Below are positions 1 through 14,028 of a DNA stretch of 52,701 bases, piece by piece. The position numbers were made by a program, and so were the translations under genes. The notes under the pieces are model-generated. The model saw nothing but the letters and a program-made list of their open reading frames with translations, was not told the origin of the DNA and did no database searches. The stretch is from Gammaproteobacteria bacterium (GTDB lineage: Bacteria; Pseudomonadota; Gammaproteobacteria; UBA5861). Position 1 is the stretch's first letter. Every line of letters starts with the position of its first letter. The stretch is taken from contig JAKSCV010000073.1 in the NCBI GenBank assembly GCA_022360445.1, positions 64,657-117,357 of the forward strand, given 5' to 3'.

Positions 1-78
1 CACAACCCGGTGAATGATTACCATGGTTACAAACGGCTCATGCACCGGATCATTTTAAAGGGCGATAGACCATCGTGA
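1..78 (+). CDS. TauD/TfdA-family dioxygenase, C-terminal end (partial)
   Basis: An open frame runs in from the window edge for 25 codons and stops at TGA 76-78. It contains a stretch reading RLMHRIILKGDRP. That resembles the C-terminus of Fe(II)/2-oxoglutarate-dependent TauD/TfdA dioxygenases, where a last His and Arg near 'MHR' bind iron and 2-oxoglutarate. The stop overlaps the GTG start of the next gene (GTGA), which suggests translational coupling with the exporter. Only the tail is visible, so the family call is tentative and the substrate cannot be inferred. Confidence 0.5.
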   Translation, partial: HNPVNDYHGYKRLMHRIILKGDRPS

Positions 79-980
79 CCTCAGGCGCAGGTATTGGTCT
101 TCTTAAACAGCGTATTGAAGCCATACCCACCAGTGTGAGAGGTATATTGCTGGCATTAATTGCCGCCCTATCATTTACCAGTTTGCACACTGCCATACGT
201 TATACCTCGCAAGAATTACACGTTTTCGAGATCACCTTTTTCCGCTACCTGCTCTCTGTACCGATTATCCTGCCCCTGTTGTTGCGTTCAAGGTTTACTG
301 TATTAAAAACCAACTGTTTCCATTTGCACGCTCTGCGGTGTTTCTTCCTTTTGTGCTCGGTGGCGGGTTTGTTTACTGCACTGAGCCTATCGCCATTGTC
401 CCAAGTGACGTCTCTGACGTTTTTAGCGCCTGTACTGGGAGCGGCTTTTGCGATTCTCTTCTTGCAAGAATACGCTGGCTTTTTTCGTTGGGCTGCAGTC
501 ATCGGAGGGTTTATTGGTACGCTTGTTGTGTTGCGTCCAGGCCTTATCGAAATTGAACTGGGCCCCATCCTGGCTATTTTTGGGGCAACGATGTGGGCGC
601 TGTCGATCCTAATTATCAAGGTTATGTCCAAAACAGAATCCAGCACTACTCAAGTCACCTACCTGACCTTGCTGGTAACGCCGGTTTCTATGGTGGCTGC
701 TTTATTTTTTTGGCAGTGGCCTAATCTGGAGCAATGGCTACTGTTATTTTTTATCGCGGGCGTTGCAACCTTAGGACAGTTTACTTACACCCAGTCGTTC
801 ACCTTGGCAGATACAACCGTACTCATGCCTCTGGACTTTACTCGTATGGTTTGGGCGACTTTATTCGGTTATGCTTTTTTTGGTGAATTGCCTGACTTAT
901 GGACATGGATCGGCGGCGCACTGATTTTTGCTAGTGCAGCGATGGTCACCATTACCGAAGCGCGCAGAAAACCCCCATGA
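75..980 (+). CDS. EamA/DMT-superfamily transporter
   Basis: A 301-residue protein with about ten hydrophobic segments arranged as two EamA repeats (roughly residues 21-150 and 160-295). This is the usual length and layout of inner-membrane drug/metabolite transporters that export amino acids, nucleosides or similar small molecules. The GTG start at 75 overlaps the stop of the upstream dioxygenase-like frame by four bases, so the two are probably co-translated. It converges with copD, whose stop lies 13 bases beyond. The substrate is not readable from the sequence. Confidence 0.85.
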   Translation: MTSGAGIGLLKQRIEAIPTSVRGILLALIAALSFTSLHTAIRYTSQELHVFEITFFRYLLSVPIILPLLLRSRFTVLKTNCFHLHALRCFFLLCSVAGLFTALSLSPLSQVTSLTFLAPVLGAAFAILFLQEYAGFFRWAAVIGGFIGTLVVLRPGLIEIELGPILAIFGATMWALSILIIKVMSKTESSTTQVTYLTLLVTPVSMVAALFFWQWPNLEQWLLLFFIAGVATLGQFTYTQSFTLADTTVLMPLDFTRMVWATLFGYAFFGELPDLWTWIGGALIFASAAMVTITEARRKPP

Positions 981-993
981 ATACCGTGTAGAC

Positions 994-1905
994 TTACGCG
1001 GCCATATTGGCTGGAGACAGCCAGGTGGTCAGAATCGTCGTTGTCAGAAAAATAAACAGACCAAGCGCCAATTCCATTTTTATGGAGCGTGCGAGTGCCA
1101 AGTGTCCTTGTCCGTTTGCCAACAGAGGGGTTAAGCGCCACTTATTCAAGGCTGCCAAAGATAACAGACCGGTGACGAAAATAAGTTTCGTCAGTAGCAT
1201 GTTGCCATAGTTTGTTTGGATGAGTTCGGCCGCAGACGCCAGGAGTAGAAAGAGCAAATACCCTCCACTCAACATCAGCAAACCTACGGCCCAAGCGGCC
1301 AGCTGTCCAAATCGGGTCATCAAATCATGCAATGACGTTTGCTCTAGCATATGGCAGGATCGCCAAAGAGGATAGAGTGACCCGAGCCACCAGGAGATTG
1401 CGATCACATGAACCATAATCAACAAGACGGCAATGTCGGGCAAGTCGACGGTATGCCCGGTCTGGTGAAAGGAGTATCCATAAAGCAAAAGGGCACCCGT
1501 TAGTGTTAGATCACGAAAACGCACGGGTAAGGAGGTCAGGGAGGGCACAGTTGTTTCACGCCAGAGTAGTCCCGTGGTGAGTAAAAAAAACAGGCTCGAA
1601 AGTGATCGAGTCAGCGCCTGCTGCCCGATCGGTGAGTCCCATAAAATAGCGGTAAAATCAGGATCCCAAAGGCCACGTAGGCCGTTATCTGCATAGGCGC
1701 CGACCTGAACGACAAAACTCATGACAGCCGACACGGATAAAACCGCAGCGGATAATCCGGCATACCTTAAAAGGTAGCGCCGGAAAGACAGCGGCTTTGA
1801 GGTCATTAACACAATGGAAAGGCCTCCCAAGGAAAAAGCACCACTGATGTACAGGAGTAACGTGTTAGCGAGCGCCACAATATCCCAAGTGGATACATCC
1901 AGCAT
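994..1905 (-). CDS. copD: Copper resistance protein CopD family
   Basis: A 303-residue polytopic membrane protein with about eight hydrophobic helices. The C-terminal third matches the CopD domain (helix ending in LTTTILTTWLSP), and paired His residues sit in central helices (SFHQTGHTVDLP, MVHVIAISWW). CopD is an inner-membrane protein that works with periplasmic CopC in copper uptake or resistance. The start is well placed after an AGAGGAG ribosome-binding site. copC lies immediately upstream on the same strand, so the two probably share a transcript. The family call is firm; direction of copper movement is not. Confidence 0.88.
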   Translation of the reverse strand: MLDVSTWDIVALANTLLLYISGAFSLGGLSIVLMTSKPLSFRRYLLRYAGLSAAVLSVSAVMSFVVQVGAYADNGLRGLWDPDFTAILWDSPIGQQALTRSLSSLFFLLTTGLLWRETTVPSLTSLPVRFRDLTLTGALLLYGYSFHQTGHTVDLPDIAVLLIMVHVIAISWWLGSLYPLWRSCHMLEQTSLHDLMTRFGQLAAWAVGLLMLSGGYLLFLLLASAAELIQTNYGNMLLTKLIFVTGLLSLAALNKWRLTPLLANGQGHLALARSIKMELALGLFIFLTTTILTTWLSPANMAA

Positions 1906-1996
1906 ATAAAGCTCCTCTTTTAATTTTTACATGTTCCATGGCCGCTCGTACTGAAGAGGGAGAGGCCAAGACCTTCGCTTTCAAGCGGATCAAGCC

Positions 1997-2362
1997 CTAC
2001 TTAACAGACTGTATAGCGTCGAGAGTAAAGGTGAGTTTGCCGGAAATTTTGTGTGCATCGGAACCCATCCCCTGCCAATGCACAATAAATTTTGAAGGCG
2101 TTAATGGCGGCAGGGTTATTTTAAACGTGTCTTTCGCTGCTTTTTGGGGTTTAAACTCAAGTGGGATGGCCTGATTTTCTGCATTGACCAAGCGTAGCTT
2201 CAAGAGACGAACCTTGCCAGTAAAGCGCAACTCCAGAAACGCCGGAGGAGCGCTGAGCAAATCGCTGTCATTAGGTGTGGAGCCCGTGAGCTTGGTATGC
2301 GCCAAGGCTTGGGTTGAAATCAATAAGGCCAAACTGAAAAACATGTTTCTCATGACATACAT
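1997..2362 (-). CDS. copC: Copper-binding periplasmic protein CopC
   Basis: A 121-residue precursor with a signal peptide of about 21 residues (cleavage after ALA) that leaves His22 as the mature N-terminus, as in CopC proteins where the N-terminal amine and His1 bind Cu(II). A D-x-H pair (Asp102, His104) near the C-terminus supplies the remaining ligands of a high-affinity Cu(II) site. No Met-rich Cu(I) loop is evident, so it is probably a Cu(II)-only type. The start follows AAGGAAA. It lies upstream of copD on the same strand. Confidence 0.9.
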   Translation of the reverse strand: MYVMRNMFFSLALLISTQALAHTKLTGSTPNDSDLLSAPPAFLELRFTGKVRLLKLRLVNAENQAIPLEFKPQKAAKDTFKITLPPLTPSKFIVHWQGMGSDAHKISGKLTFTLDAIQSVK

Positions 2363-2482
2363 GGTATTTCCTTTTTAAACGAAAGGGCCATATTAAAAAT
2401 CGTGTACCAGCCGTTTTCCACTGATTCTGAAAAACAGATGTTCGGAGATTTTTTGCCTAATACAGCCTCAGAGTTCCACTAA

Positions 2483-2986
2483 CTAGTATTGTTCCTGTTG
2501 TTGTGTGATGGACGAATAAAGCCGGTAGGATCCGTCTTCCCTCATCATCATGACTTGATACGGTGAAAATTGGTGACCGTATTCCATGCCCGGGCTGCCC
2601 GCCGGCATTCTCGGTACGATCAGCCCGCGCGCACCGGATGGTTTTTCTTGTAAAAAGCGCTGAATGAACTTGGCAGGAATATGCCCTTCAAACACATAGC
2701 CTGACGACGAGACCGTTGTGTGGCAGGCTTGGTGGCGGGGGTTGATTTGGTAACGGCGCTTAACGTTGTCTAAACTTTTCCTATGCTGTATTTCTGTTTC
2801 GAATCCGGCTGTTTCAGCGTGTTCGACCCATTTTGTGCAGCACCCGCAAGTCGGGCTTTTATAGACGATGAGTGATTCATAGCCTACTTGTGTCTCCGCT
2901 TGTAGTGAAGGAAAAGCGTGCACACCTGGCAACAACAGGGCAAAAAAATAATGTAAAAAGCGTATTTGTCCGCGCTTACTTAACAT
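2483..2986 (-). CDS. DUF411 metal-binding protein
   Basis: A 167-residue protein with an N-terminal hydrophobic export signal (about residues 9-24) followed by a DUF411 domain. The signature is a Cys cluster in YKSPTCGCCTKW (Cys47, Cys49, Cys50), a later Cys88, and the sequence GHIPAKFIQRFL. DUF411 proteins are periplasmic and often found in copper or mercury gene clusters; a metallochaperone role is inferred. The start follows TAGGAG. Its place upstream of copC and copD in the same direction supports a copper role. Confidence 0.85.
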   Translation of the reverse strand: MLSKRGQIRFLHYFFALLLPGVHAFPSLQAETQVGYESLIVYKSPTCGCCTKWVEHAETAGFETEIQHRKSLDNVKRRYQINPRHQACHTTVSSSGYVFEGHIPAKFIQRFLQEKPSGARGLIVPRMPAGSPGMEYGHQFSPYQVMMMREDGSYRLYSSITQQQEQY

Positions 2987-3103
2987 GATGTTACTCCTAA
3001 GAAATCATAATAAAGGGTATGGCCGCATTTATTTGCAGCCAGTTTTCCGACAGTACGACGCTGCTTTGTCGAACCGCGAGCAAACGAAGGAGAGTACAAC
3101 GTA

Positions 3104-3472
3104 TCAGGTGTTTGGCGGGCGCAAAGGTGGTGTGGAATACCCCGCGCGAGCGAAGGCTAAGAGAAAGGTGTCTGCTTGGCGCTGTAATGGTATAGGCTGG
3201 ATGGGTGCATGAGTGGTTAAAAGGGCGCTTATCGAACAGCCACCTGCAGTGCAGTGAGCGAGTTCCCCACAGCAGTCAGCGTGAGATTGGTGGGTGTTTT
3301 GATGGTGATCGGCAGCCGAACCGTGCAAAGCCGAAGGTGTGATCGTATGCGGGATGATGAAAATATCACTCACCATTTGTGCCTGTTTGGCTTGAAAAGC
3401 CATCAGAAAAAGTAAGGCGATCAGTAGTAGCACAAAGGGCCGGCTCATCCAAAATAACCGTTGGGTTACCAC
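3104..3472 (-). CDS. Cys/His-rich DUF2946-like small protein
   Basis: A 122-residue protein with an N-terminal hydrophobic segment (about residues 12-27) and a Cys/His-rich central stretch at about 49-79 with HH, CC and two further Cys. The C-terminus is Pro/Arg-rich and ends PPLRPPNT. This layout resembles DUF2946 proteins, which often accompany copper genes and TonB receptors. The GTG start at 3472 has no strong ribosome-binding site; an internal ATG eight codons later is also possible. It heads the reverse-strand copper cluster. Family assignment is by overall pattern only. Confidence 0.6.
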   Translation of the reverse strand: MVTQRLFWMSRPFVLLLIALLFLMAFQAKQAQMVSDIFIIPHTITPSALHGSAADHHQNTHQSHADCCGELAHCTAGGCSISALLTTHAPIQPIPLQRQADTFLLAFARAGYSTPPLRPPNT

Positions 3473-3948
3473 AGTTTGATTACGCTATCCATTAAATACG
3501 CAGCCACGACAACACATCGTAATTCATAATCAGTTTAATCGACAGTCTTTGAAAGGCAAAGGTATATTGCTTGGCTGTCATGTTTTTATTTCTCAGCCTG
3601 AGAATAAGGGCGCGATATAAATGTGGTTGTCATGAAAGCCTCTTCTCCGTTTTTCGGACAGGGGATAAACAAAAATTCTCATGTTTGCTCGAGTGACATC
3701 CACTTTGTTCTGGGTAATTTTTTATGTGTCCCATGGGACGCTCTTGCCTGGTGTGATATGTGTTTTGAATCGCATACTTATCCATCTATGCGTCATCATT
3801 CCTGTATGATGGATGGTCGCAAAATCGCTGCATTTGATGCCAGTGATATGACAAAACGTTTTGGCCTGTTGACATCAATGGCGCGTAAGCCGGGTTAATG
3901 CCGTTATCTACTGAAAACTTTGGCAAGTTATTATATTTCCAGGAAATT
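3473..3948. other. Gene-poor stretch between copper cluster and GNAT cassette
   Basis: No convincing gene is seen. It should hold the promoter of the reverse-strand copper cluster and the 5' junction of the GNAT cassette. A 91-codon forward frame at 3623-3898 is open but resembles nothing I recognise and lacks a convincing ribosome-binding site. Possible cassette junction cores (GTTATCT near 3903, GTTAATG near 3893) are too degenerate to assign. Confidence 0.4.
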
Positions 3949-4347
3949 ATGAATTACGGAAACTATCGAATGAGTGATGACCGAAAAGAGGTGCAACTTG
4001 ATCAAGTTGAGCTTCTATTGAGGTCGTCATACTGGGCTAGCAAAAGAACTTTGGAAATGATGAAGGTCTCAATAGAAAATAGTATTTGTTTTTCACTGTT
4101 TTTTGATGATGTTCAAGTTGGGTTTGCTCGGGTAGTCACCGACTTTGCTTCGGTGGCCTATATCGCTGATCTAATAATCCATCCGGATCATCGCGCTAAA
4201 GGCGTTGGGACGTGGATGTTCGGGGTGATCATCAACGATCCACGTTGGTGCTCTAAATTTCAATTTTTAGCCACGGATGACGCACACGGTCTATATGAAA
4301 AATTCGGCTTTTCCGGTAGCCACAAATTAATGAGCACAAAAATATAA
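3949..4347 (+). CDS. GNAT N-acetyltransferase in a lone integron cassette
   Basis: A 132-residue protein with the GNAT acetyl-CoA-binding motif A at residues 77-90 (IIHPDHRAKGVGTW, the RxxGxG loop) and the late YEKFGF motif B. It is a compact single-domain acetyltransferase of unknown substrate. The ATG at 3949 follows AGGAA; an ATG at 3970 is an alternative. The gene is more AT-rich than ycaQ next to it. Its TAA stop (4345-4347) falls inside the left core of an attC site, which is typical of cassette genes and marks recent acquisition. Confidence 0.8.
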   Translation: MNYGNYRMSDDRKEVQLDQVELLLRSSYWASKRTLEMMKVSIENSICFSLFFDDVQVGFARVVTDFASVAYIADLIIHPDHRAKGVGTWMFGVIINDPRWCSKFQFLATDDAHGLYEKFGFSGSHKLMSTKI

Positions 4348-4430
4348 CACGTTGCAGCAACCTTCCCGTCAGTCTCTAGGACGCCCGAAACGCTGTGCTT
4401 ATTTTGATCTCTGATGATGCAGCGTTAGGC
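4342..4430 (+). other. attC site of the GNAT cassette
   Basis: Left core ATATAAC (4342-4348) and right core GTTAGGC (4424-4430) bracket an 89-bp imperfect palindrome. Next to the cores, AACACGTTGCAGCA matches the reverse complement of TGATGCAGCGTT with one extra A on the left arm. That is the extrahelical-base pattern of attC sites. The upstream gene stops inside the left core. The right core lies 8 bp before the ycaQ start and its AGG may serve as that gene's ribosome-binding site. Confidence 0.7.
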
Positions 4431-4438
4431 AAACAAGT

Positions 4439-5653
4439 ATGAGCATGATTGAAATTAAACAGCCCCCAACACTGGCGCGTTTGCGCCGCCTGGCCCTGTC
4501 GGCACAAGGTTTATTGCAGGCTCAACCTTATGGTCGAGGCCTTTCGGGGGCATGTAAAGCGATTAACCATATCGGTTATGTGCAGGTGGATACTATCTCT
4601 GTCGTGGAGCGCGCACACCACCATGTTTTTTATGCCAGGGTGCCTGGTTTTAAGCCGGCTATGACCAATCAAATGCTGTTGAATGGCGATATTTTTGAGT
4701 ACTGGGCGCACGCAGCATCGTTTTTACCCATGGCCGACTTTCGCTTTTCCTTGCCCTACAAGCACGCCATTAAAAACGGCCAAATTCATTGGTACAAAAA
4801 CCCCGATAAAAAACTCATGGGTGAACTGCTGGCACGCGTGCGCTCCGATGGCCCGATACGATCTCGAGATATTGAAGCCAACACTACAAAACGAGCCGGT
4901 TGGTGGGACTGGAAACCGGCCAAAAAAGCGCTTGAACAGCTGTACATGGAAGGTGACCTGATGGTCTGCGACCGTGAGGGCTTTCAAAAAACATATGACC
5001 TAACCGAGCGAGTGCTACCCTCTCACATCAATGCGCAAATGCCCAGTATGGAAGAGTTTGCTGAACACCTTGTTGACCAACAGTTGCGTTGCCACGGGCT
5101 TGTTTCACTCAAAGGCTTGACTTACCAACGCCGGAACACCGAGTTACGTAAAGCCGTGAAAGCCCTCATCGAGGATAGACTGGCGCAGCGTACTTTAGAA
5201 CAAGTACGCTTGAGCGATGGTGACGTTTTTCTATTGGAAGCGGGTGTGCTCGAATGCCCTTTGCCCCGGTTGAATAATCGCCTGTCGATTCTTTCGCCTT
5301 TCGACAACAGTGTGATTCAGCGCGACCGGCTCAAAACTCTGTTCCAATTTAAGTACCAGATAGAATGCTATGTCCCTGAGGCTAAACGACAATACGGTTA
5401 CTTTTGCCTACCGCTGCTTTACCGCGATGCATTTATTGGACGGATGGACTGCAAAGCACATAGAAAAGCCAGCCATCTGGAGATCAAAGCATTGCATTTG
5501 GAACAACACCGTTTTGACGAAGACGCGGTCATGGCCGCCTTTGTCCGCGCCATTAAACGGTTTTGTCAATTTCAACAATGTGATTCCGTATCGTTGACCC
5601 AGGCCTATCCCAAGCACCTTGCCCAGCGTGTGCAACGTGCACTAAATGGCTAG
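4439..5653 (+). CDS. ycaQ: YcaQ/AlkX-family winged-helix DNA glycosylase
   Basis: A 404-residue protein of the HTH_42 (YcaQ/AlkZ) family, usual length. E. coli YcaQ is a DNA glycosylase that unhooks interstrand crosslinks and removes bulky N7-alkylguanines. The catalytic Q-hydrophobic-D motif is visible as Gln49-Val50-Asp51 in IGYVQVDTIS, followed by the conserved HHHVFYAR segment. The Asp-type motif fits the YcaQ branch rather than the antibiotic self-resistance AlkZ branch (QxQ). The ATG at 4439 is 8 bp after the attC core, so the cassette may have changed its promoter. It overlaps the TerC-family gene end by four bases. Confidence 0.88.
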   Translation: MSMIEIKQPPTLARLRRLALSAQGLLQAQPYGRGLSGACKAINHIGYVQVDTISVVERAHHHVFYARVPGFKPAMTNQMLLNGDIFEYWAHAASFLPMADFRFSLPYKHAIKNGQIHWYKNPDKKLMGELLARVRSDGPIRSRDIEANTTKRAGWWDWKPAKKALEQLYMEGDLMVCDREGFQKTYDLTERVLPSHINAQMPSMEEFAEHLVDQQLRCHGLVSLKGLTYQRRNTELRKAVKALIEDRLAQRTLEQVRLSDGDVFLLEAGVLECPLPRLNNRLSILSPFDNSVIQRDRLKTLFQFKYQIECYVPEAKRQYGYFCLPLLYRDAFIGRMDCKAHRKASHLEIKALHLEQHRFDEDAVMAAFVRAIKRFCQFQQCDSVSLTQAYPKHLAQRVQRALNG

Positions 5654-6414
5654 GGGTGGGTTTCATCAGTCATCTTTTTTGAAAGGTGTATGGGCTTCAC
5701 TTCTGTCGTTTTGCGAGATCGCACTCGGATATTCAACAACTCCACAATAAATGAAAACGCCATTGCAAAATAAATATACCCCTTGGGTACATGCACATCG
5801 AAACCCTCTGCCATCAGTGTAAAACCAATGAGCATCAAAAAAGACAGAGCCAACATTTTAATCGTAGGATTTTTGTCGACAAAATTCCCGATGGGTTGGG
5901 CAGCCAGCAACATTACGCCAATTGAAATGACAATCGCAATGACCATGATTGATACGTACTCCACCAACCCCACTGCGGTGATCACCGAGTCGAGTGAAAA
6001 CACAACATCCAAAATGGCAATTTGAATCAGAATGGAGAGAAAGCTGGCGTGTTGAGTGGGTTTACCTGTGTCTGCCGTGATTTCCAGACTGCTGTGAATC
6101 TCATGGGTTGCCTTTGCCAAGAGAAACAGCCCGCCCAAAATTAAAATAATATCCCGCCCGGATATCTCAATATCAAACACCGAGAATAAAGGCTCAATCA
6201 AGCCCATAATCCACACCAGGCTGAATAGCAGCAACAATCGGGTGCCCATGGCTAAACCAATACCCAGCCTTCGTGCCGAATTACGCTGGCTTTCTGGTAA
6301 ACGGCCAACGAGGATAGAAATAAAAATGATATTGTCGATCCCCAGCACAATCTCTAGGGCAACCAAGGTTGTTAAAGCCACCCAGGCTTCTGGGTTGGCA
6401 GCCCACTCAAACAT
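5650..6414 (-). CDS. TerC-family integral membrane protein (YgdQ-like)
   Basis: A 254-residue protein with about seven membrane helices and the two acidic TerC signatures, ALEIVLGIDNIIFIS near residue 20 and DVVFSLDSVITAVGL near 137. TerC-family proteins are linked to tellurite resistance, Mn2+ efflux and metalation of secreted enzymes. The N-terminus and the lack of a CBS/CorC tail are most like E. coli YgdQ. The start follows AAGGATAAACAAC. It converges on ycaQ with a four-base overlap at the stops. The ion transported is not shown by sequence. Confidence 0.88.
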   Translation of the reverse strand: MFEWAANPEAWVALTTLVALEIVLGIDNIIFISILVGRLPESQRNSARRLGIGLAMGTRLLLLFSLVWIMGLIEPLFSVFDIEISGRDIILILGGLFLLAKATHEIHSSLEITADTGKPTQHASFLSILIQIAILDVVFSLDSVITAVGLVEYVSIMVIAIVISIGVMLLAAQPIGNFVDKNPTIKMLALSFLMLIGFTLMAEGFDVHVPKGYIYFAMAFSFIVELLNIRVRSRKTTEVKPIHLSKKMTDETHP

Positions 6415-6991
6415 GTTGTTTATCCTTATTTAAACCCCGCAAACCGGGAGAGGATGTTATTGTAAAGCCTACATTCAGCGAAGGAAGTGTTCATTTCTCG
6501 TTGGATGCCTGGGCATTAAAATCGCACCACAGAAAACTCTCGGATACGTTATTCATCGTTAAGCTATGCTGGTTATAGTTGAAAATCCGCTCATGAAGCG
6601 CCTTGATTGACTGCTTCTGCTTGACACTCATCAACGTCGACTTTCTCTTCCATCAGCTGTTTTTCGGCAAACCTCCTGCATCCGATTTTTACCATAGTCA
6701 ATGTCTACCCACTGTTGGTTCTCCAATCGGATCAACATCCACCAAGTTCCATGTTGGCCTTATTTCGATAAATTTTCTTAATTAAGTTTTGGATAACCTC
6801 CGACATCATGATCCAGCCGTTGGTCGATGACTATGTGATTCAAAAACTGATGGGCCGTTGCTGTATATTATGTGGGCTCTCCACCGGAGCGGTCGCCAAA
6901 ATCCTCCTCTTTTACACCAAATTGTTGATTGCCGATGAGAGTTTCCGCTGTACCTTTCAGGATGTCGACACACCCACCTTCATGATCATGC
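6415..6991. other. Gene-poor stretch between terC-like gene and cassette array
   Basis: About 580 bases without a recognisable gene. It includes the promoter side of the TerC-family gene. Several short frames are open: forward 6808-7002, with a Cys-rich CCILC stretch, and reverse frames of 34-36 codons around 6600-6720. None has a good ribosome-binding site or a family signature. It may be decayed cassette or transposase DNA. No attC core pair was found. Confidence 0.4.
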
Positions 6992-7171
6992 TTATGACAT
7001 AGCTGATTCGTTAACAGGCTGGATCTCAATGATATGTAAGCCAAACCTTGTTAATCCTGTCAAACCACCTAGAGATTGATTTAGTTCGTTTAGCATTCTC
7101 ACTAAGAAAATGAACCTTTGACGTGCCATCAAGGTTTTCAATCTTTTCTTGGTGATCAGGTATTTATCCAC
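6992..7171 (-). CDS. Small hypothetical protein, last cassette of the array
   Basis: A 59-residue frame starting with GTG at 7171 and ending with TAA at 6992. It is basic at the N-terminus (DKYLITKKRLKTLMARQR) and then mildly hydrophobic; I recognise no family. The start is preceded by a strong GGAGGATC ribosome-binding site only a few bases after the GTTAGGC core of the neighbouring attC site, the standard layout for a cassette gene. No attC was found after its stop, so this cassette is probably truncated. Confidence 0.5.
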   Translation of the reverse strand: MDKYLITKKRLKTLMARQRFIFLVRMLNELNQSLGGLTGLTRFGLHIIEIQPVNESAMS

Positions 7172-7186
7172 TGACTGATCCTCCAG

Positions 7187-7288
7187 GCCTAACGTCTACG
7201 ACCACCGGAAAAAGGAGCGGGGAAAGTTATGCTACGCTTGCAGAATACAATTTTGCGTACCGAGATTTTTTCCGGTGCATTGTTTTTT
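7187..7288 (-). other. attC-like site after the GFA gene (imperfect)
   Basis: On the reverse strand a clean right core GTTAGGC (7187-7193) closes a palindrome with perfect 11-bp arms CACCGGAAAAA (7203-7213) and TTTTTCCGGTG (7267-7277), plus a shorter inner pairing. The left core is degenerate (AAAAAAC, 7282-7288), just beyond the GFA stop. An alternative left core, GCATAAC (reverse strand, 7226-7232), would give a short site. Confidence 0.5.
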
Positions 7289-7292
7289 ATGT

Positions 7293-7715
7293 TTATTTGC
7301 TAATTCTTTCGTGTATCCAACTCGGCCATTCTCGATGACTCTCTAAGCTACCGTCTAATTCTAACCAAGGCGCCTTACTATCGGTGAATTGTTGATAACT
7401 AATTTCAATACCTTCGTGAGAATCTAAACTACCCAAAGATAAATAACAGTTTACTGAATCTAACGCATGAACCGACAATAAAAATGAACCGCAATTCGAG
7501 CAAAAGAATCGCTCTAAGTTAGTATTCTGGTGATACGAGTTTAAAACCTCTTCTCCAGACAACCAACTAAATTCACTTTTTCTTACCATTCCATACACTC
7601 CCATCGCAGAGCCCGTTAGACGACGGCAGATAGAACAGCAGCAATAATTGCAATCTGTCGGCTCACTTTCGATTTCATACCGAATCGAACCACATAAGCA
7701 AGAACCCGTTTTCAT
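7293..7715 (-). CDS. GFA/CENP-V zinc-fold protein
   Basis: A 140-residue protein of the glutathione-dependent formaldehyde-activating (GFA) fold. Zinc ligands are visible as CLC (Cys6, Cys8), the CNYCCCSIC cluster (Cys22-Cys30) and FCSNC (Cys72, Cys75). GFA proteins bind glutathione or act in formaldehyde and thiol chemistry, but most family members have no proven reaction. The ATG follows AGGG shortly after an attC core (GTTATGC, 7738-7744), as expected for a cassette gene. It is AT-rich relative to the chromosomal flanks. Confidence 0.85.
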   Translation of the reverse strand: MKTGSCLCGSIRYEIESEPTDCNYCCCSICRRLTGSAMGVYGMVRKSEFSWLSGEEVLNSYHQNTNLERFFCSNCGSFLLSVHALDSVNCYLSLGSLDSHEGIEISYQQFTDSKAPWLELDGSLESHREWPSWIHERISK

Positions 7716-7737
7716 AAATTAATCAACCCTCATAGAG

Positions 7738-7818
7738 GCATAACGCCCACATAAAAGGCGAGCGATAGCGCATTCAGCCCACGCTTTTTGTGAGCGGTTT
7801 TTAATGTGCTTGTTAAGT
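7738..7818 (-). other. attC site after the cupin gene
   Basis: This 81-bp palindrome has reverse-strand left core ACTTAAC (7812-7818) and right core GTTATGC (7738-7744). The adjoining arms pair well: AAGCACATTAAAA on the left against TTTTATGTGGGC on the right, with mismatches typical of attC. The TAA stop of the cupin gene (7813-7815) lies inside the left core. Confidence 0.8.
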
Positions 7819-8241
7819 GATTTTAATTGCATTGCCTAATGGGCTTCCTTCAAAGTAATTGACTATGTGAGACATAGCGCCTTCGAAACCACCAGGAGTA
7901 TTGATTGAAATAAATCCGACTTTGGTGTTGCTTCGATTTTCGAAACCATGTTCGGTTTCACCTGGAATATAAATGTATGAGCCTTTTTCAGCTTCAAACC
8001 ATTCCCTGTCTTCAATGTAAATCGCCAAATTTCCTTCGAGTACATAAAACAGATGGGCTTCTGAATGCTTATGAATATGCGGCCCTTCTGTATTAGCTTC
8101 TAACCACCACTCTGAGACCGAGAGTGTTGAATTTGTCTCCTCAAGATCAGCTTTAAAAACGGCCGACATTCTACCCATTGAGTACTTACGACCTTTGTTT
8201 GGCTCTAATACTATCGGTTTCAAGTTATTTTTCTCGTTCAT
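7813..8241 (-). CDS. Cupin-domain protein
   Basis: A 142-residue single cupin. Motif 1 has His55, His57 or His59 and Glu61 (GPHIHKHSEAHLFYVLEG). Motif 2 is GSYIYIPGETEHGF with His98. These are the usual metal ligands of the fold. The function (dioxygenase, isomerase or binding protein) cannot be read. It follows the DUF1428 gene by 33 bases with no attC between them, so both seem to travel in one two-gene cassette. The TAA stop is embedded in the attC left core. Confidence 0.85.
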   Translation of the reverse strand: MNEKNNLKPIVLEPNKGRKYSMGRMSAVFKADLEETNSTLSVSEWWLEANTEGPHIHKHSEAHLFYVLEGNLAIYIEDREWFEAEKGSYIYIPGETEHGFENRSNTKVGFISINTPGGFEGAMSHIVNYFEGSPLGNAIKIT

Positions 8242-8274
8242 AATTTCAAGTTGCTTAATACGATTAATGCTGTG

Positions 8275-8628
8275 CTAAGATTTTAATACCGTGTTAAAGC
8301 CACCGTAAATTAGACGCTTTCCATCAAAAGGGATTGGGTTATTTTCTGGGGACATTCTGGGGTCTTCCATCATTGCACCCCAACCAGCGTCACGAATTTC
8401 TTTAGATGGCCAAATTACCCACGAAAATACCACCGTTTCATTTTCTTCGGCTTTCACCGCCATTGGAAAAGAAGTTATTTCCCCACCAGGTACATCATCG
8501 CCCCAATTCTCTACGATTTCTAAAGCTCCACTTTCTTTGAATAATTCTGCGGCTACTTTTGCGTGCTCAATATACTTTTCTTTGTTTTCACTCGGTACTG
8601 CTGCAACAAAACAATCTACATATGACAT
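8275..8628 (-). CDS. DUF1428 family protein (YbaA-like)
   Basis: A 117-residue protein matching DUF1428, a dimeric alpha-beta-barrel fold related to E. coli YbaA. The N-terminus MSYVDCFVAAVP, the central FSWVIWPSK and the end PFDGKRLIYGGF are diagnostic. No reaction is established for the family. It starts after a GGAAATTGAA ribosome-binding region and is followed 33 bases later by the cupin gene. The attC separating it from the upstream PAT-like gene is degenerate. Confidence 0.88.
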   Translation of the reverse strand: MSYVDCFVAAVPSENKEKYIEHAKVAAELFKESGALEIVENWGDDVPGGEITSFPMAVKAEENETVVFSWVIWPSKEIRDAGWGAMMEDPRMSPENNPIPFDGKRLIYGGFNTVLKS

Positions 8629-8661
8629 TTCAATTTCCTTTTTTGTTGGTTTTGGCGTACG

Positions 8662-8710
8662 GCGAAACTTTACTCTGGCTTAATGTCTGTATCAGCGGAA
8701 TTTGTTAGAC
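8662..8710 (-). other. Degenerate attC-like site after the PAT-like gene
   Basis: Reverse-strand left core GTCTAAC (8704-8710) is a perfect match and contains the TAA stop of the PAT-like gene, continuing AACAAA as in classical sites. The right side is weak: the best core candidate is GTTTCGC (8662-8668) and the arms do not pair well. This may be a half-deleted site. Confidence 0.4.
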
Positions 8711-9199
8711 GCCGGGTATAACCACTTGCCAATAACCGACATCCAGCCATTTACCATTTTTACGGCCAATGCTATGTAAATGACCGACCTTTTCAAAGCC
8801 AAATTTCTCGTGAAGTGCCACGCTACCTTGATTTGGCAATGCAATAACGCCTATTGCAGTGCGAATTCCATTATCCTTCAAGCGTAGAAGCAACTCCTGA
8901 TATAACAGACTCCCAGTCCCCTGCCTTAACTCTTCATGGTCGAGATATGCAGTGACTTCAACTGTATTTTTATACGCAGCACGCCCATGCCAAGGTGCTG
9001 CATAGCAATACCCTACAATATGGCCTGAAATATCCGCTACTAACCATGGGAGTCCACTCTTTCGAATCTTCTCGACACGGTCCATCATGATGATCGAGTC
9101 AATTTCGGATTCTTCAAATGAGGTTTCTGTACGTCTGATATAGTAGTTGTATATTTCAGTTATTCTTTCTAAATCGCTGTCTTGAAGTTCTCTAACCAT
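8705..9199 (-). CDS. PAT-like GNAT N-acetyltransferase
   Basis: A 164-residue GNAT protein of the phosphinothricin/methionine-derivative acetyltransferase type. Features are the N-terminal IYNYYIRRTETSFEE segment, GYCYAAPWHGRAAYKNTVE, the acetyl-CoA loop LRQGTGSLLY, and the ending NQGSVALHEKFGFEKVGHL. Relatives acetylate phosphinothricin, methionine sulfone or similar amino acids. The ATG follows GAGAG soon after attC core GTTAGAT (9214-9220), and the stop is inside the next attC core. Family is clear; substrate is not. Confidence 0.85.
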   Translation of the reverse strand: MVRELQDSDLERITEIYNYYIRRTETSFEESEIDSIIMMDRVEKIRKSGLPWLVADISGHIVGYCYAAPWHGRAAYKNTVEVTAYLDHEELRQGTGSLLYQELLLRLKDNGIRTAIGVIALPNQGSVALHEKFGFEKVGHLHSIGRKNGKWLDVGYWQVVIPGV

Positions 9200-9213
9200 C
9201 AGACTCTCACAGT

Positions 9214-9284
9214 ATCTAACGTTTATAAGGGCGCAATGTCAGGAACGCCCAGTGAGCGAAAGTGAACGACTTGATGTGTTTGCT
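9214..9284 (-). other. attC site after the small membrane-protein gene
   Basis: Reverse-strand right core GTTAGAT (9214-9220) is perfect. The left core is a weaker AGCAAAC (9278-9284) that overlaps the TAG stop of the preceding gene. Between them is CAAGTCGTTCACTTTCGC, a stretch I associate with many attC left arms, and a GGGCG/CGCCC hairpin. Outer-arm pairing is weak, so this is a moderate call. Confidence 0.5.
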
Positions 9285-9633
9285 ACAAGTCTGGGTAACA
9301 TGGGTCTTTTTCTCCATATGACCATAAAGGTGATACAGACTTCAATTTATCGCTTTCATCAAATTTGAAACCAATCCAGCCTACCCAGGTACACCCATCT
9401 TTTTCAAATGCTTCTTGATCTGTATGTTTACTTGCAGCAGCAATAATTTCTTTTTTCTTGGCATGTTTAGCTACTTCAGGTAACGTAGCCATTAATTGCT
9501 TTCGAGTTTCTTCTAGTTCATAGGTTTGTTGATCTCGGGATGAAAGTATTACCCTAGTGTCCACAACCTGATATAACCAAAAAGCATTAGTAGCTAATAA
9601 AAATACGACAAGTATTGCGATTGTAATTTTCAT
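9283..9633 (-). CDS. Hypothetical membrane-anchored cassette protein
   Basis: A 116-residue protein with one N-terminal hydrophobic segment (about residues 3-22) and a soluble C-terminal part containing a Lys-rich, probably helical stretch and two Cys (GCTWVGWIGF, KDPCYPDL). I do not recognise the family. I chose the ATG at 9633 over a longer frame because AGAAGGAAAA lies directly before it and overlaps the attC core (9640-9646). Any upstream extension would translate through the attC site. Confidence 0.65.
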   Translation of the reverse strand: MKITIAILVVFLLATNAFWLYQVVDTRVILSSRDQQTYELEETRKQLMATLPEVAKHAKKKEIIAAASKHTDQEAFEKDGCTWVGWIGFKFDESDKLKSVSPLWSYGEKDPCYPDL

Positions 9634-9639
9634 TTTTCC

Positions 9640-9711
9640 TTCTAACGACCAAGCTGTGCGGCGCAAATGAAGTGCAGTGTAGATTGCGCCCGGACGAGCG
9701 CCTTGTCATGC
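9640..9711 (-). other. attC-like site after the RibD/DHFR-like gene
   Basis: Reverse-strand cores GCATGAC (9705-9711) and GTTAGAA (9640-9646) flank a strong inner palindrome, GGGCGCAA paired with TTTGCGCC, around a loop holding CACTGCACTTC. The left core departs from RYYYAAC and the right core ends in A, so the site is somewhat degenerate. The next gene starts immediately after it. Confidence 0.6.
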
Positions 9712-9718
9712 CACACTT

Positions 9719-10240
9719 TTAGGCAACTTCATATGTGTTGAATACGATGCCGCAGCTATAGCTTTTTTGGTCAACAAGCTTCAATGAAACATGTTTCGGA
9801 ATTGAACCGAACAAGGGAATTCCGGTGCCAAATACTACGGGGTTTAGCTTAATTACGATTTTGTCTATCAACTCAGCTTTGAGCAATTGCGTGGCGATTT
9901 CTGACCCACCACAAACCCAGATTGGTTTATCCGAGATTGACTTTAGTGCTTTGACAAATTCGACCGGATCCGAAGCTACCAGCTCAACCTCTGGATCGGG
10001 GCTTGTACTCATTGACTTAGAAAAAACAATTTGCCGCATGTCAGGATACGGGCTGGTTTTTCCTTCGTTTAAACCAATCTCATATGTTTTCCTACCCATT
10101 AAAACTGTTCCGAATTGCTTTTGATCATTAAAAAAATCGGAAACGACTTCATCATCCCAAGCGAACCCATCGAATGAGCCATCTTCGTGCGCAATAAAGC
10201 CATCAAGTGTAGATGCAACGTAGTAAATTAGTTTAGACAT
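9719..10240 (-). CDS. RibD C-terminal/dihydrofolate-reductase-like protein
   Basis: A 173-residue protein of the RibD C-terminal (DHFR-like) fold. Signs are LIYYVASTLDGFIAHEDGS at the start, the NADPH-binding MGRKTYE, and WVCGGSEIATQLL near the end. Such stand-alone proteins are NADPH reductases of uncertain substrate and are common in cassettes; trimethoprim resistance is not implied. I chose the ATG at 10240, preceded by AGGTAACC, rather than a Met 12 codons upstream with no ribosome-binding site. The TAA stop lies 8 bases before the attC left core. Confidence 0.85.
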   Translation of the reverse strand: MSKLIYYVASTLDGFIAHEDGSFDGFAWDDEVVSDFFNDQKQFGTVLMGRKTYEIGLNEGKTSPYPDMRQIVFSKSMSTSPDPEVELVASDPVEFVKALKSISDKPIWVCGGSEIATQLLKAELIDKIVIKLNPVVFGTGIPLFGSIPKHVSLKLVDQKSYSCGIVFNTYEVA

Positions 10241-10278
10241 CAGGTTACCTATAATTTTGAGTATGGAGAATAACATCT

Positions 10279-10374
10279 ATTTAACCGACAATTTTTTTCA
10301 GAGTGATTCTGTGTAAAAAATGTAGCGAAGTGAAGCACACAAAAGCGCATAGCAAAAAAACTGCCTGGTTGACA
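10279..10374 (-). other. attC site after the cassette EamA gene
   Basis: A 96-bp site with reverse-strand right core GTTAAAT (10279-10285) and left core TGTCAAC (10368-10374). The arms AACCAGGCAGTTTTTTT and AAAAAAATTGTCGGTT pair almost fully, leaving one extra base on the left arm, as in functional attC hairpins. This is among the best sites in the array. Confidence 0.75.
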
Positions 10375-10380
10375 TATTTG

Positions 10381-11268
10381 TTATATTTTTGGCTTTCTGT
10401 CTATTTTTGATAAATATTTTTTTCCCAATATTACCATTAATACGCCACCGAGAATCAATGTTCCTGATATGAAAAGACGTAGAGTGATAGGCTCAGATAC
10501 AAATATTACACCGCCAAGCGCTGCTATTGCGGGAACTAGCAACTGAAACACAGCAGCTTGAGTTGAGGTTAGGTATGAAAGTGCTGAATACCAAACAGTG
10601 TAGCCAATACCTGAAGCAATACCACCTGATAAAGTGGCTAAAATAACACCATGGAACGAATAATTAGCGCTATTCAATGTAGAAATGACTAAAATTAATG
10701 CAAATGGCATTATTCTTATAAAATTATATGTTGTATCGGATAGTGGATTCTTGGAGCTACGTCCTTTTAATGTATAACCCCCCCATGCAATACCTGATAC
10801 TGTCATGAGTAAAAAACCGGTTAAAGAAGGTGTAGATACGTCGGGAAGGATAAGATATACAAATCCAATAAATGCGATAACTATCCCAATCCACTCGGTT
10901 ATGTGCAAACGAGAGCCAGAATAAATGGATATTAGAATCATTGTGATCTGAACTGAGCCAAAAAGGATTAATGCCCCGGTCCCCGTCTCAAGTGTTAGAT
11001 AGGCGTATGAAAATGAAATTGCGTACAGGAATAACATAAAACTAGCAAGCCAGCTGCCTTTAGCGCTAACTTCGGAACTTTTATTTCGAGTTAAACTCAA
11101 TATGACCAAAAGCACAACTGCTCCGGATATAAGACGTATAACTGTAAAACTGGAAGCATCAATTGCATGATTCTCTAATGCCAATCTAGAGAGTATTGAG
11201 TTAGCTGCGAATGCGACTAGGGCAAATCCAGTCAGTATTATTGATTTCAAAAGAGAATGATGGATCAA
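10381..11268 (-). CDS. EamA/DMT-superfamily transporter in a cassette
   Basis: A 295-residue protein with about ten membrane helices in two EamA repeats, the second beginning near residue 150 (MTVSGIAWGGYTLKGR). It probably exports a small metabolite. The TTG start at 11268 is supported by AGGA eight bases upstream and lies just after an attC right core (ATATAAC on the forward strand, 11285-11291). It is clearly different in sequence and more AT-rich than the chromosomal DMT transporter at the window start. The neighbouring upstream attC is disrupted by an IS element. Confidence 0.8.
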   Translation of the reverse strand: MIHHSLLKSIILTGFALVAFAANSILSRLALENHAIDASSFTVIRLISGAVVLLVILSLTRNKSSEVSAKGSWLASFMLFLYAISFSYAYLTLETGTGALILFGSVQITMILISIYSGSRLHITEWIGIVIAFIGFVYLILPDVSTPSLTGFLLMTVSGIAWGGYTLKGRSSKNPLSDTTYNFIRIMPFALILVISTLNSANYSFHGVILATLSGGIASGIGYTVWYSALSYLTSTQAAVFQLLVPAIAALGGVIFVSEPITLRLFISGTLILGGVLMVILGKKYLSKIDRKPKI

Positions 11269-11284
11269 ATTAAATTCCTAAAAA

Positions 11285-11325
11285 ATATAACACTCGCGCT
11301 CACTGGCGACCTGCAAAGCAGGCCG
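11285..11325 (-). other. Right half of an attC site split by the IS element
   Basis: Reverse-strand right core GTTATAT (11285-11291) is preceded by GCCAGTGAGCGCGAGT and by a terminal hairpin CCTGC-TTT-GCAGG. The sequence stops abruptly at the inverted-repeat end of the IS at 11326. The matching left half lies on the other side of the element at 12571-12596. Confidence 0.55.
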
Positions 11326-11354
11326 TGATCTTTCCCCGATAAAACGGACACGAC

Positions 11355-12227
11355 TTAAGCTGCGTGTTTTTCATAGTGAATAGGACTGTAATATCCGATT
11401 CCCGAATGCAGTCTCGCGCGATTGTAAAACCCATCAATATACGATGACAATGGTCGCCTAAGTGATTCCTCAGTTCTAAATAATCGTCCGCGAATCAACT
11501 CGCCCTTTAGACTGTGGTAAAACGACTCCATGTGGGCGTTGTCAGTACAGTGACCCAGGCGATTGTAGCTACATTTTATTCCGTGTTTCCTAAGCTCGTT
11601 CTGTATCGCATACGCCATAAACTCAATTCCTCTATCGGTATGGAATATCAGCCCCGGTTTCGGACGACGTTTGTTGATGACGCGCTTTAATAGCTGGAGC
11701 ACATCATCAGCTGTCCGATGTTGACGAAGTGACCACCCAAGAATTCGTCGAGAATAAACATCCATTATTGTAATGAGGTGCTGGTATTGTTGGCCCACCT
11801 TGATAAACGTAATGTCTGCCACCCACTCGCTATCACAACTCGTTAGCGGTGGTGTGTTCAAACGAAGATTGTCGCCAGCCTGCTGAAATGCGCGTAATCT
11901 CGGGGTTCGTCTCGTGACTGTCACCACACGACCTTTGAGGCCACTTTCCCGCATTAAACGGGCCACCCGAATACCTTCCAAGCGGAGAGAGCGATGGACC
12001 CTTGGGCTCCCATAGGTCGTTCGACTCGCAGCATGGATGACTTTTATGCGCTCCATCAGTTCAACGTCTTCCTTTTGCCGTTTGCTGGGTTCAAGATTCT
12101 TCCAGTCGTCATCACCACTGGGCGATACATTCAACCATTTGCACAGGTATCTGACAGCTAGGCGTCGTCCGTATCTCTGGATGAATGCAAATTGTTCTGA
12201 TGTGGTTCCGCCAGATACCGTTGCTAC
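11355..12227 (-). CDS. IS3-family transposase OrfB (DDE integrase core)
   Basis: A 290-residue frame carrying the rve/DDE core. The first Asp is in WVADITFI, the second in FHTDRG, and the Glu in NAHMESFYHSLKGE, with the C-terminal RLHSGIGYYSP typical of IS3-family OrfB. The frame continues upstream of its first good start codon to a TTTAAAAAG motif at the orfA end, where a -1 slip would fuse it to OrfA as OrfAB. The N-terminal HTH_21 region is present. No internal stop is seen in orfB itself, but the decayed orfA should leave the element inactive. Confidence 0.85.
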   Translation of the reverse strand, partial: VATVSGGTTSEQFAFIQRYGRRLAVRYLCKWLNVSPSGDDDWKNLEPSKRQKEDVELMERIKVIHAASRTTYGSPRVHRSLRLEGIRVARLMRESGLKGRVVTVTRRTPRLRAFQQAGDNLRLNTPPLTSCDSEWVADITFIKVGQQYQHLITIMDVYSRRILGWSLRQHRTADDVLQLLKRVINKRRPKPGLIFHTDRGIEFMAYAIQNELRKHGIKCSYNRLGHCTDNAHMESFYHSLKGELIRGRLFRTEESLRRPLSSYIDGFYNRARLHSGIGYYSPIHYEKHAA

Positions 12228-12484
12228 TTTTTAAAGAGGTCATTCTCCTGTTTCAATCGGGCGTTTTCAATTTTTAGCTTTCTGACTCAGTCAAGTGTTT
12301 GCTTCTCTTTACTTATCCCGGTGAGCTTCTGTCTTTTATTCGACACGAATTTTCCTTCACGATACTCTTTTCGCCAACGCGAAAGCATAAAAGGGTGGAT
12401 ACCGAGTGTCAGGGCTACGTCCTTGACTGGCACATCCTCCAAATGGGACAACTCGACGGCCTTAGCCTTGAATTCGTCGCTGTA
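12224..12484 (-). pseudogene. Degenerate IS3-family OrfA
   Basis: Translation of the reverse strand gives the start YSDEFKAKAVELSHLEDV, a helix-turn-helix region with ALTLGIHPFMLSRWRKEY, and a leucine-zipper-like end reading KIENARLKQENDLFKK, the standard OrfA layout. The frame is broken: a TAA stands directly before the YSDEF segment in place of a start, and an in-frame TGA occurs at 12287-12289. The terminal TAG at 12224-12226 is probably the natural orfA stop after the slip site. Confidence 0.75.
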
Positions 12485-12570
12485 TTACCAGGTTCTCCTG
12501 GGTTAATTGTACCTCGGCATGTCTGGACTGCTCGAGAGATTGAGGTGTGTGTGCTATCGGGTGAAGTTCA

Positions 12571-12596
12571 GGGTCCGGTTGAACACTTTGTTAGCA
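12571..12596 (-). other. Left half of the IS-split attC site
   Basis: On the reverse strand TGCTAACAAAGTGTTCAACC begins with a left core (TGCTAAC, 12590-12596) that contains the TAA stop of the lipoprotein gene. It continues as an attC left arm until it is cut by the IS end at 12570. Joined to 11285-11325 it would make a site of about 67 bp, although arm pairing is only partial. Confidence 0.55.
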
Positions 12597-12974
12597 ATTT
12601 GTATTTAGATTTACCCTAACACGGTGATCACCAATTTGCCCTATAGATGTATATTTATAAATGGAACCTCTAACACAACGAATACTAACAGTATCGTTAT
12701 CATTCCAAGTTATTTTTAATGCTTCATTAGAATCAATGCGTAAAACATCTAAATCTTTATCGATATTTAAAGGACCAACATTTTTAGAATGTATAAAAAC
12801 CCGAAAAACAAAAGGAACAGTTGCTCCATAATTAAATGTCACAATTGACAGTACATTCATATTATCTGGGCTTTGATACTGGCTGGAAAGTTCACTATGA
12901 GAATACCCATCATCACAGCCGAAGAGTAAAAATATGACAATCAAAAATATTTTAATGGCCACGAAATCTCGCAT
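12591..12974 (-). CDS. Hypothetical lipoprotein, cassette gene
   Basis: A 127-residue protein with a lipoprotein signal: hydrophobic residues 8-18 followed by LLFGC with Cys20 as the probable lipidation site. The mature part is mainly polar with predicted beta character and two Cys near the end; no family was recognised. A GTG five codons downstream is an alternative start. The frame overlaps the preceding 84-codon frame by 23 bases, suggesting coupling. Its TAA stop lies in the left core of the IS-split attC site. Confidence 0.65.
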   Translation of the reverse strand: MRDFVAIKIFLIVIFLLFGCDDGYSHSELSSQYQSPDNMNVLSIVTFNYGATVPFVFRVFIHSKNVGPLNIDKDLDVLRIDSNEALKITWNDNDTVSIRCVRGSIYKYTSIGQIGDHRVRVNLNTNC

Positions 12975-13206
12975 AATCTATCCCCGTCTTAATTTGAACC
13001 TGATCTTGAGGGCCATCTCCGTATGGAGCTTCTTCCCACCATACACCCCATGCATTCAAGGCTGTCCCAGCTCTCGATTGTGCCCAACCAGCAGCCCTTA
13101 ACAAGATAGATTCAGAATTCCTACCGCATAACCAATTGCACCATATCGTTTGAATCTGCCAGGCGATAGAGCCTAGCGATCCGTACAGCGACGAGTTGAA
13201 TGCCAC
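12952..13206 (-). CDS. Hypothetical protein, possibly a C-terminal fragment
   Basis: An 84-codon frame from a GTG, Trp-rich with the segment AWGVWWEEAPYGDGPQDQ. No family was recognised. The same frame stays open upstream (reading NKPPEDQYPVNHVAFN) right back to the stop codon of the enoyl-CoA hydratase at 13252, with no ATG. This suggests the 3' remnant of a longer gene whose beginning was lost when the array was joined to the chromosome. It overlaps the lipoprotein gene by 23 bases. A toxin-like tail paired with an immunity lipoprotein is possible but unsupported. Confidence 0.45.
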   Translation of the reverse strand: MAFNSSLYGSLGSIAWQIQTIWCNWLCGRNSESILLRAAGWAQSRAGTALNAWGVWWEEAPYGDGPQDQVQIKTGIDYARFRGH

Positions 13207-13251
13207 GTGGTTTACTGGGTACTGGTCTTCAGGTGGCTTGTTTTTTGGTAT

Positions 13252-14028
13252 TTAAAATTTGGAAAAGTCTGGTGGGCGTCTTTCCAAAAAGGCGGAGAGC
13301 GCTTCTTTAGCCTCGAGCGATTTTTGTTGTGCGGTAAATACGCGTAATTCGTCAGTGATAACGCTTGCGATGTCTCCCCGATTCTTTTTGACCAATGCTT
13401 TGGTGCTTTGTACCGATTGAGGGGGTTTGGCCGCTAGTTTGTGGGCAATGACCCGTGTTTCCTGCTCCAGTGATGCAGCGGGAAAAATGCGGTTGATTAA
13501 CCCGATGCTGAGCGCTGTCTGTGAATCGAAGGGTTCGGACAGGAGTAACATTTCCGAGGCCTTTGCGTAGCCGGCCAGTTGAGGCAAAAGGGCGCTGGAG
13601 GCGGCTTCTGGTACGAGGCCCAAATCAGTAAAGGGTAGGTGAAAGCGGACGTTGTCCGAGGCGTACACCAGGTCACAGTGTAGGAGCATGGTTGTCCCAA
13701 CACCAATGGCCAGCCCGTCGACCGCTGCGATTACGGGCTTGCTTATGCCATCGATTGCGCGAATAAATTGAGAAAATGGTCGATTGTCTCCGTCAGGGTG
13801 ATCGCCTGCGGGTTGGTTGAGCAAGTCCCCAATGTCGTTCCCGGCGGTAAAGCAACCCGCTGTTCCGGTGATGAGTACAACGCGGGTGTTTGGGTTTTCC
13901 CCGGCAGTATTTAAGCCGTCGGCAAGGCCAAGGTACATGTCGCCGGTGAGGGCGTTTTTTTTGTCCGGGCGATTGAGCCGGAGTATTTGAACATGCCCGT
14001 CTTGTGTTGTGATCACTTGTTGCGTCAT
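13252..14028 (-). CDS. Enoyl-CoA hydratase/isomerase family protein (crotonase 1)
   Basis: A 258-residue crotonase. The oxyanion-hole segment CFTAGNDIGDLL and the second loop AIGVGTTMLLHCDLVYA are present. The glutamate of LGLVPEAASSALLP lies where crotonases place a catalytic acid, and the C-terminus ends in ALSAFLERRPPDFSKF. This pattern fits the hydratase/isomerase branch, close to enoyl-CoA isomerases that act on unusual acyl-CoAs. The start follows GGGGATACGG. It is the last gene of the mutase cluster, 155 bases after mutase 1, with an intervening hairpin. Confidence 0.82.
   Translation of the reverse strand: MTQQVITTQDGHVQILRLNRPDKKNALTGDMYLGLADGLNTAGENPNTRVVLITGTAGCFTAGNDIGDLLNQPAGDHPDGDNRPFSQFIRAIDGISKPVIAAVDGLAIGVGTTMLLHCDLVYASDNVRFHLPFTDLGLVPEAASSALLPQLAGYAKASEMLLLSEPFDSQTALSIGLINRIFPAASLEQETRVIAHKLAAKPPQSVQSTKALVKKNRGDIASVITDELRVFTAQQKSLEAKEALSAFLERRPPDFSKF

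What the first reader, a model, noticed from the sequence alone, without database searches (positions are those of the whole stretch)
3949..4430. Lone GNAT cassette with attC in the opposite direction, 8 bp before ycaQ
A second, separate cassette lies about 2.5 kb from the array on the other strand. Its gene stop is within the attC left core and the right core almost touches the ycaQ start. This suggests off-target insertion of a cassette at a secondary site, placing a DNA-repair gene behind foreign DNA.
Basis: partly seen in the sequence, partly recalled or inferred. Interest (0 to 1): 0.65.

Follow-up and report, generated by a model that had tools for sequence, protein, structure and literature searches.

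The report
Old lone integron cassette beside ycaQ
A single mobile gene cassette carrying an acetyltransferase gene landed just in front of a DNA-repair gene before two sister species split; its gene has been kept intact while its mobility site has decayed, so it is a natural but known kind of event (a lone cassette outside an integron).

Summary
A GNAT gene (3949-4347, +) ends inside an attC-like site (4342-4430) that lies 8 bp before ycaQ (4439). An attC covariance model built from 23 other cassette sites has its best hit in the neighbourhood at exactly 4342-4430, but weakly (13.5 bits). The sister species UBA5861 has the same GNAT-attC-ycaQ order, with a better site (27.5 bits, E 1e-4). The GNAT gene's nearest relatives (78-82% aa) include cassettes in Zhongshania and Marinimicrobium with matching ends. 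So this is a genuine single cassette ("SALIN"). It predates the species split (dS like the neighbours'), its gene is under purifying selection (dN/dS 0.085), and its attC no longer folds. Integrase-mediated insertion at a secondary (attG-like) site in the ycaQ leader is the best explanation, but no close empty site was found: only two genomes of the order are held, and outgroup leaders align too poorly. The neighbouring array is probably not off-target: it occupies the place where the sister carries intI beside the same hydratase gene. It looks like the orphaned array of a resident integron, so the lone cassette may instead be that array's end cassette, moved by an inversion. Known kind, modest interest.

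The parts
3927..3931 (+). left cassette junction: ..GGCAAG^TTA-TTATATTTC; crossover G3927^T3928 if TTA was duplicated, or 3930^3931 as homology to other cassettes suggests
   Evidence: blastn homology to Zhongshania cassettes begins at 3931-3932; cassettes there read G^TTATATTTC; the sister reads CAAGTTCTTATATTTC
3949..4347 (+). GNAT-family acetyltransferase gene (132 aa), cassette cargo; RBS-like AGGA before the ATG
   Evidence: ORF and Pfam; 96% aa identical in sister, dN/dS 0.085
4342..4430 (+). decayed attC site (R'' 4342-4348, R' 4424-4430, crossover G4424^T4425)
   Evidence: covariance model R1; sister site 27.5 bits; fold z -0.11
4425..4438 (+). host leader of ycaQ after the right junction (TTAGGCAAACAAGT)
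   Evidence: CAAGTATG shared with outgroup G044; TTAG likewise with a gap, p 0.035
4439..5653 (+). ycaQ (AlkZ-like DNA glycosylase), intact downstream neighbour
   Evidence: PF06224; dN/dS 0.13 against sister

Best explanation
The feature is a single integron gene cassette (a SALIN: single attC lacking a nearby integrase). Before the window's species and UBA5861 split, an integron integrase recombined the folded bottom-strand attC of a circular GNAT cassette with a double-stranded G^TT site in the leader of ycaQ (inferred CAAG^TTAGGC), an attC x attG-type reaction. The cassette went in with its gene in the direction of ycaQ, so GNAT now lies between ycaQ and its upstream sequence and is probably read from the ycaQ promoter, with ycaQ as second cistron (inferred). 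Shown: cassette anatomy, homologous cassettes elsewhere with matching ends, presence in both species, purifying selection on the gene, decay of the attC. Inferred: the integrase reaction, the exact left crossover, co-transcription. The enzyme's substrate is unknown.
For: attC model hits at the expected place and strand in both species. GNAT homologues are cassettes in Zhongshania sp. BJYM1 (an array) and Marinimicrobium alkaliphilum (the GNAT cassette's attC scores 32.4 bits); Spongiibacter marinus has it next to an array. Nucleotide homology to Zhongshania cassettes is confined to 3931-4346. The GNAT group is patchy across gammaproteobacterial families (clade 99/97) and, in 369 class genomes, strong hits (E below 1e-80) occur only in the two sisters. 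dS 0.265 lies within the neighbours' 0.15-0.44, dN/dS 0.085. The genus has intact integron integrases (445.8 and 443.5 bits) and several dispersed small attC clusters away from intI. Secondary sites need little more than GNT/GTT (PMC10127599); the attG route is published (cited in PMC12444791 and PMC12901181).
Against: No close empty site: joined-flank matches to outgroup leaders are not significant (p 0.07-0.38; right half only p 0.035 for G044, with several comparisons made). The base before the conserved cassette start is A in the window and C in the sister, not G, so a clean G^TT junction needs a small duplication or two substitutions. The site is only 2.76 kb from an integron array, which a random insertion would rarely hit. 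The window's attC does not fold.
Confidence: 0.62

Rival explanations
1. The GNAT cassette was the last cassette of the resident integron array, with ycaQ as the host gene beyond the array's end; an inversion of the segment about 3928-7187 between G^TT sites (integrase off-target inversion or other) flipped GNAT-ycaQ-TerC away from the array.
For: The array (minus strand, about 7187-12600) lies where the sister carries intI next to the same hydratase gene (window 13239 = L120:8402; intI L120:8474-9418), so this is probably the native integron locus. Reversing 3928-7187 would place GNAT in tandem after the array's last attC with the right strand (read). Integrase-mediated inversions between inverted GTT sites are published (PMC10127599). 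The lone cassette is only 2.76 kb from the array.
Against: The sister has copper genes-GNAT-ycaQ-TerC in the present order, so the inversion would have to predate the split; nothing of 6476-13238 matches the sister, so no trace of the alternative order was found.
Confidence: 0.2
2. The GNAT cassette arrived next to ycaQ by ordinary (homologous or illegitimate) recombination of a DNA piece carrying a cassette, or is the sole survivor of a longer off-target cassette cluster, so that no single attC x attG event took place here.
For: Small attC clusters of 2 or more sites occur elsewhere in the genome; clusters can erode to one. The left junction is not a clean G^TT at the conserved cassette start.
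Against: No further attC relic is seen upstream, the left homology stops at the cassette end within a few bases, and the right junction is a full GTTRRRY core.
Confidence: 0.13
3. GNAT is an old chromosomal neighbour of ycaQ, and the attC-like sequence is chance.
For: The window's site alone is weak (z -0.11, 13.5 bits).
Against: The sister site scores 27.5 bits at the same place; homologues in other genera have attC at the same stop codon; none of the outgroup ycaQ loci examined has GNAT upstream.
Confidence: 0.04

Closest known systems
[quoted passage not shown]
   Same: one promoterless gene with one attC, no integrase beside it
   Different: scored here with a model made here, not IntegronFinder; the attC is decayed, the insertion is older than a species split and lies in a gene leader
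attG integrations (Loot et al. 2024, Nat Microbiol 9:228; known here only through citing papers and memory)
   Same: cassette outside an array, oriented, bordered by G^TT-like junctions, next to a possible host promoter
   Different: published events are, as far as I know, mainly experimental in E. coli; here a natural, old, apparently kept one, with no empty site shown
Fixed CALINs of Xanthomonas (PMC12444791)
   Same: attC clusters at conserved chromosomal places away from intI
   Different: those have two or more attC sites; here one

Membership tests
Integron gene cassette | ORF followed by an attC whose R'' overlaps or follows the stop codon | tested here: met
   TAA inside ATATAAC; model hit 4342-4430
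Integron gene cassette | R' core GTTRRRY | tested here: met
   GTTAGGC 4424-4430
Integron gene cassette | bottom strand folds into an attC hairpin | tested here: not met
   window z -0.11, sister -0.48; the same cassette in Marinimicrobium -4.28. Lost in the window, so it is filed as a relic cassette, probably no longer mobile, not as a working one
Integron gene cassette | same gene found as a cassette elsewhere with the same ends | tested here: met
   Zhongshania, Marinimicrobium
SALIN | exactly one attC with no integrase close by | tested here: met
   no other credible attC on the + strand in 1-13400; intI on another contig. The minus-strand array 2.76 kb away lies within the 4 kb that IntegronFinder, from memory, uses for clustering, so that program might group them
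attG insertion | empty target site in a relative | tested here: inconclusive
   only outgroups with 79% aa ycaQ or less; weak match
attG insertion | G^WT at both junctions | tested here: inconclusive
   right junction G^TT clear; left junction G^TT only if a TTA duplication is assumed
attG insertion | active integrase carries out the reaction | not testable with these tools
   intact intI in both genomes, but no reaction assay

The most novel reading that the evidence does not exclude
A natural attG-type insertion that became domesticated: the cassette trapped the promoter of a DNA-crosslink-repair gene, giving a stable GNAT-ycaQ operon kept by selection across speciation while the attC decays and locks it in place.
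Probability: 0.35. Interest if true: 0.5.

Novelty: new member of a known kind. Interest (0 to 1): 0.3.

Why it matters
It is a natural case, placed relative to a species split, of a cassette leaving the array system and becoming an ordinary chromosomal gene: the gene is kept while the attC decays. It also shows that a lone cassette close to an integron array need not be an independent off-target event, because the array may itself mark the resident integron.

Tried and rejected
Rfam gave no hit at its gathering thresholds. A first simple arm-matching scan missed the site; a second scored it 16.8, within chance for the region, although the sister scored 22.2. Looking for the empty site in order and family relatives failed for lack of genomes and in outgroup leaders for lack of similarity. 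The sister's sequence beyond TerC was tested as a possible array: no attC. The GNAT was sought on plasmids: only relatives under 60% identity, best listed about 40%. The idea that the own C49 integrase is the ortholog of the sister's was rejected: 51% aa identity and no flank homology. No promoter or terminator above chance was found between 3100 and 4600. The attG paper itself is not held.

Full report
What is there. The window carries a GNAT acetyltransferase gene at 3949-4347 on the + strand. Its stop codon lies in ATATAAC (4342-4348), a cassette R'' box; the site ends with GTTAGGC (4424-4430), an R' box, 89 nt in all. ycaQ, an AlkZ-like DNA glycosylase gene, starts 8 bp later at 4439.

Is the site an attC? 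I collected 23 attC sites from arrays in two Spongiibacteraceae genomes (Zhongshania sp. BJYM1, two contigs; Spongiibacter marinus) and in the window's own genome (none from this GNAT cassette), aligned them and built a covariance model. In the 800 bp around the gene the best hit is exactly 4342-4430 on the + strand, 13.5 bits, E 0.0033; over 13.4 kb E is 0.055. In the sister species the same place scores 27.5 bits, E 1e-4 in 193 kb. The window's copy therefore looks decayed: by folding, its bottom strand is no better than shuffled sequence (z -0.11), the sister's hardly (-0.48), while the same cassette's site in Marinimicrobium folds well (-4.28).

Is the gene a cassette elsewhere? The nearest GNAT relatives are in Zhongshania, Marinimicrobium and Spongiibacter (78-82% aa), then Pseudoalteromonas, Catenovulum and Enterovibrio (70-73%). 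With the window's gene they form one group (99/97) spread across families. In Zhongshania sp. BJYM1 the gene lies in an array and is bordered by G^TTATATTTC..ATG and ..AAATATAG..GCG^TTATG; in Marinimicrobium by G^TTATATTT and an attC of 32.4 bits; in Spongiibacter marinus it follows an attC of 56.5 bits. Not every relative is a cassette today: in Pseudoalteromonas, Catenovulum and Spongiibacter thalassae no attC follows the gene. Nucleotide homology between the Zhongshania copies and the window starts at 3931-3932 and ends at 4346, i.e. at the cassette's ends.

Age and selection. Only one other genome of the order is held, UBA5861 (named through its record). It has the same arrangement in an 89% identical 6.5-kb stretch. 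The GNAT gene's dS (0.265) is within the range of its neighbours (0.15-0.44), so it was there before the split; dN/dS is 0.085, and ycaQ's is 0.13, so both genes are being kept.

How it got there. The genus has intact integron integrases, and the window's genome has several small attC clusters on contigs without a full intI, so cassettes do scatter here. Integrases accept sites with little more than GNT/GTT (PMC10127599), and cassette insertion at so-called attG sites is published (cited in PMC12444791 and PMC12901181; the paper itself is not held). The right junction, G4424^T4425 in GTTAGGC, fits. The left one reads CAAG-TTA-TTATATTTC (window) and CAAG-TTC-TTATATTTC (sister): a clean G^TT junction at 3927 if three bases were duplicated, otherwise the base before the cassette is not G. 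A true empty site was not found: the closest ycaQ genes without GNAT are 79% identical in protein, and their leaders match the joined flanks no better than chance, apart from a weak match of the right half in G044 (TTAG----ACAAGT, p 0.035 among several comparisons).

The neighbouring array. Homology of the window with sister contig C37 runs from 21632 down to 13239, the end of an enoyl-CoA hydratase gene; directly beyond it the sister has an integrase gene, and then the contig ends. In the window this spot is followed by the minus-strand array (GFA, cupin, DUF1428, GNAT, a small protein, RibD-like, EamA, then an IS3-type transposase and a further cassette-like gene). The array's direction fits an integron whose integrase stood beside the hydratase. 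So the array is probably a resident integron's, orphaned by loss of its integrase, not an off-target cluster. The integrase on the own contig C49 is a different one (51% aa).

This matters for the lone cassette. A random insertion would rarely fall 2.8 kb from the integron. If the segment 3928-7187 is mentally reversed, GNAT becomes the array's last cassette, on the right strand, with ycaQ next. An inversion between G^TT sites is therefore a serious rival, which I put at 0.2; nothing in the sister shows that order, and in the sister the sequence beyond TerC is unrelated and holds no attC.

Likely working. The cassette has no promoter recognisable by consensus. The gene lies in ycaQ's orientation with no terminator found between, so co-transcription from sequence upstream of 3927 is likely, but it is inferred. 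E. coli YcaQ unhooks DNA interstrand crosslinks (PMC7367128); why an acetyltransferase would be kept with such a gene is unknown, and the pairing may be accidental.

Verdict. A real, single, old and decayed integron cassette beside ycaQ: a SALIN in the published sense (PMC12690207). New member of a known kind; interest 0.3.

Noticed in passing
window 7187-12600, minus strand; L120:8403-9501: Array of about eight cassettes at the place where the sister species has intI next to the enoyl-CoA hydratase gene; it looks like a resident integron that lost its integrase here.
   Followed up: partly
window 11355-12134, minus strand: IS3-type transposase gene (with further IS-like sequence to about 12480) inserted in the array, apparently between the EamA cassette and a further cassette.
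   Followed up: no
window 8705-9199, minus strand: Array cassette encoding a GNAT close to ArsN1 family B (arsinothricin resistance; 179.5 bits, under the 210 cut-off).
   Followed up: no
L119:8344-12908 (own contig C49): Second, complete integron with an integrase only 51% identical to the sister's, whose open frame begins about 150 aa before the usual integrase domain.
   Followed up: partly
L126, L127, L128, L129, L130, L134: Several small attC clusters (2 or more sites each) on other contigs of the same genome, candidates for attG-type insertion; one (L126) has its left flank and its cassettes on different contigs in the sister.
   Followed up: partly
L026:5962-7936: In Marinimicrobium alkaliphilum the same GNAT cassette is followed by a membrane-protein gene and, after a further attC-like site, a second acetyltransferase gene that looks AAC(3)-I-like by eye.
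   Followed up: no
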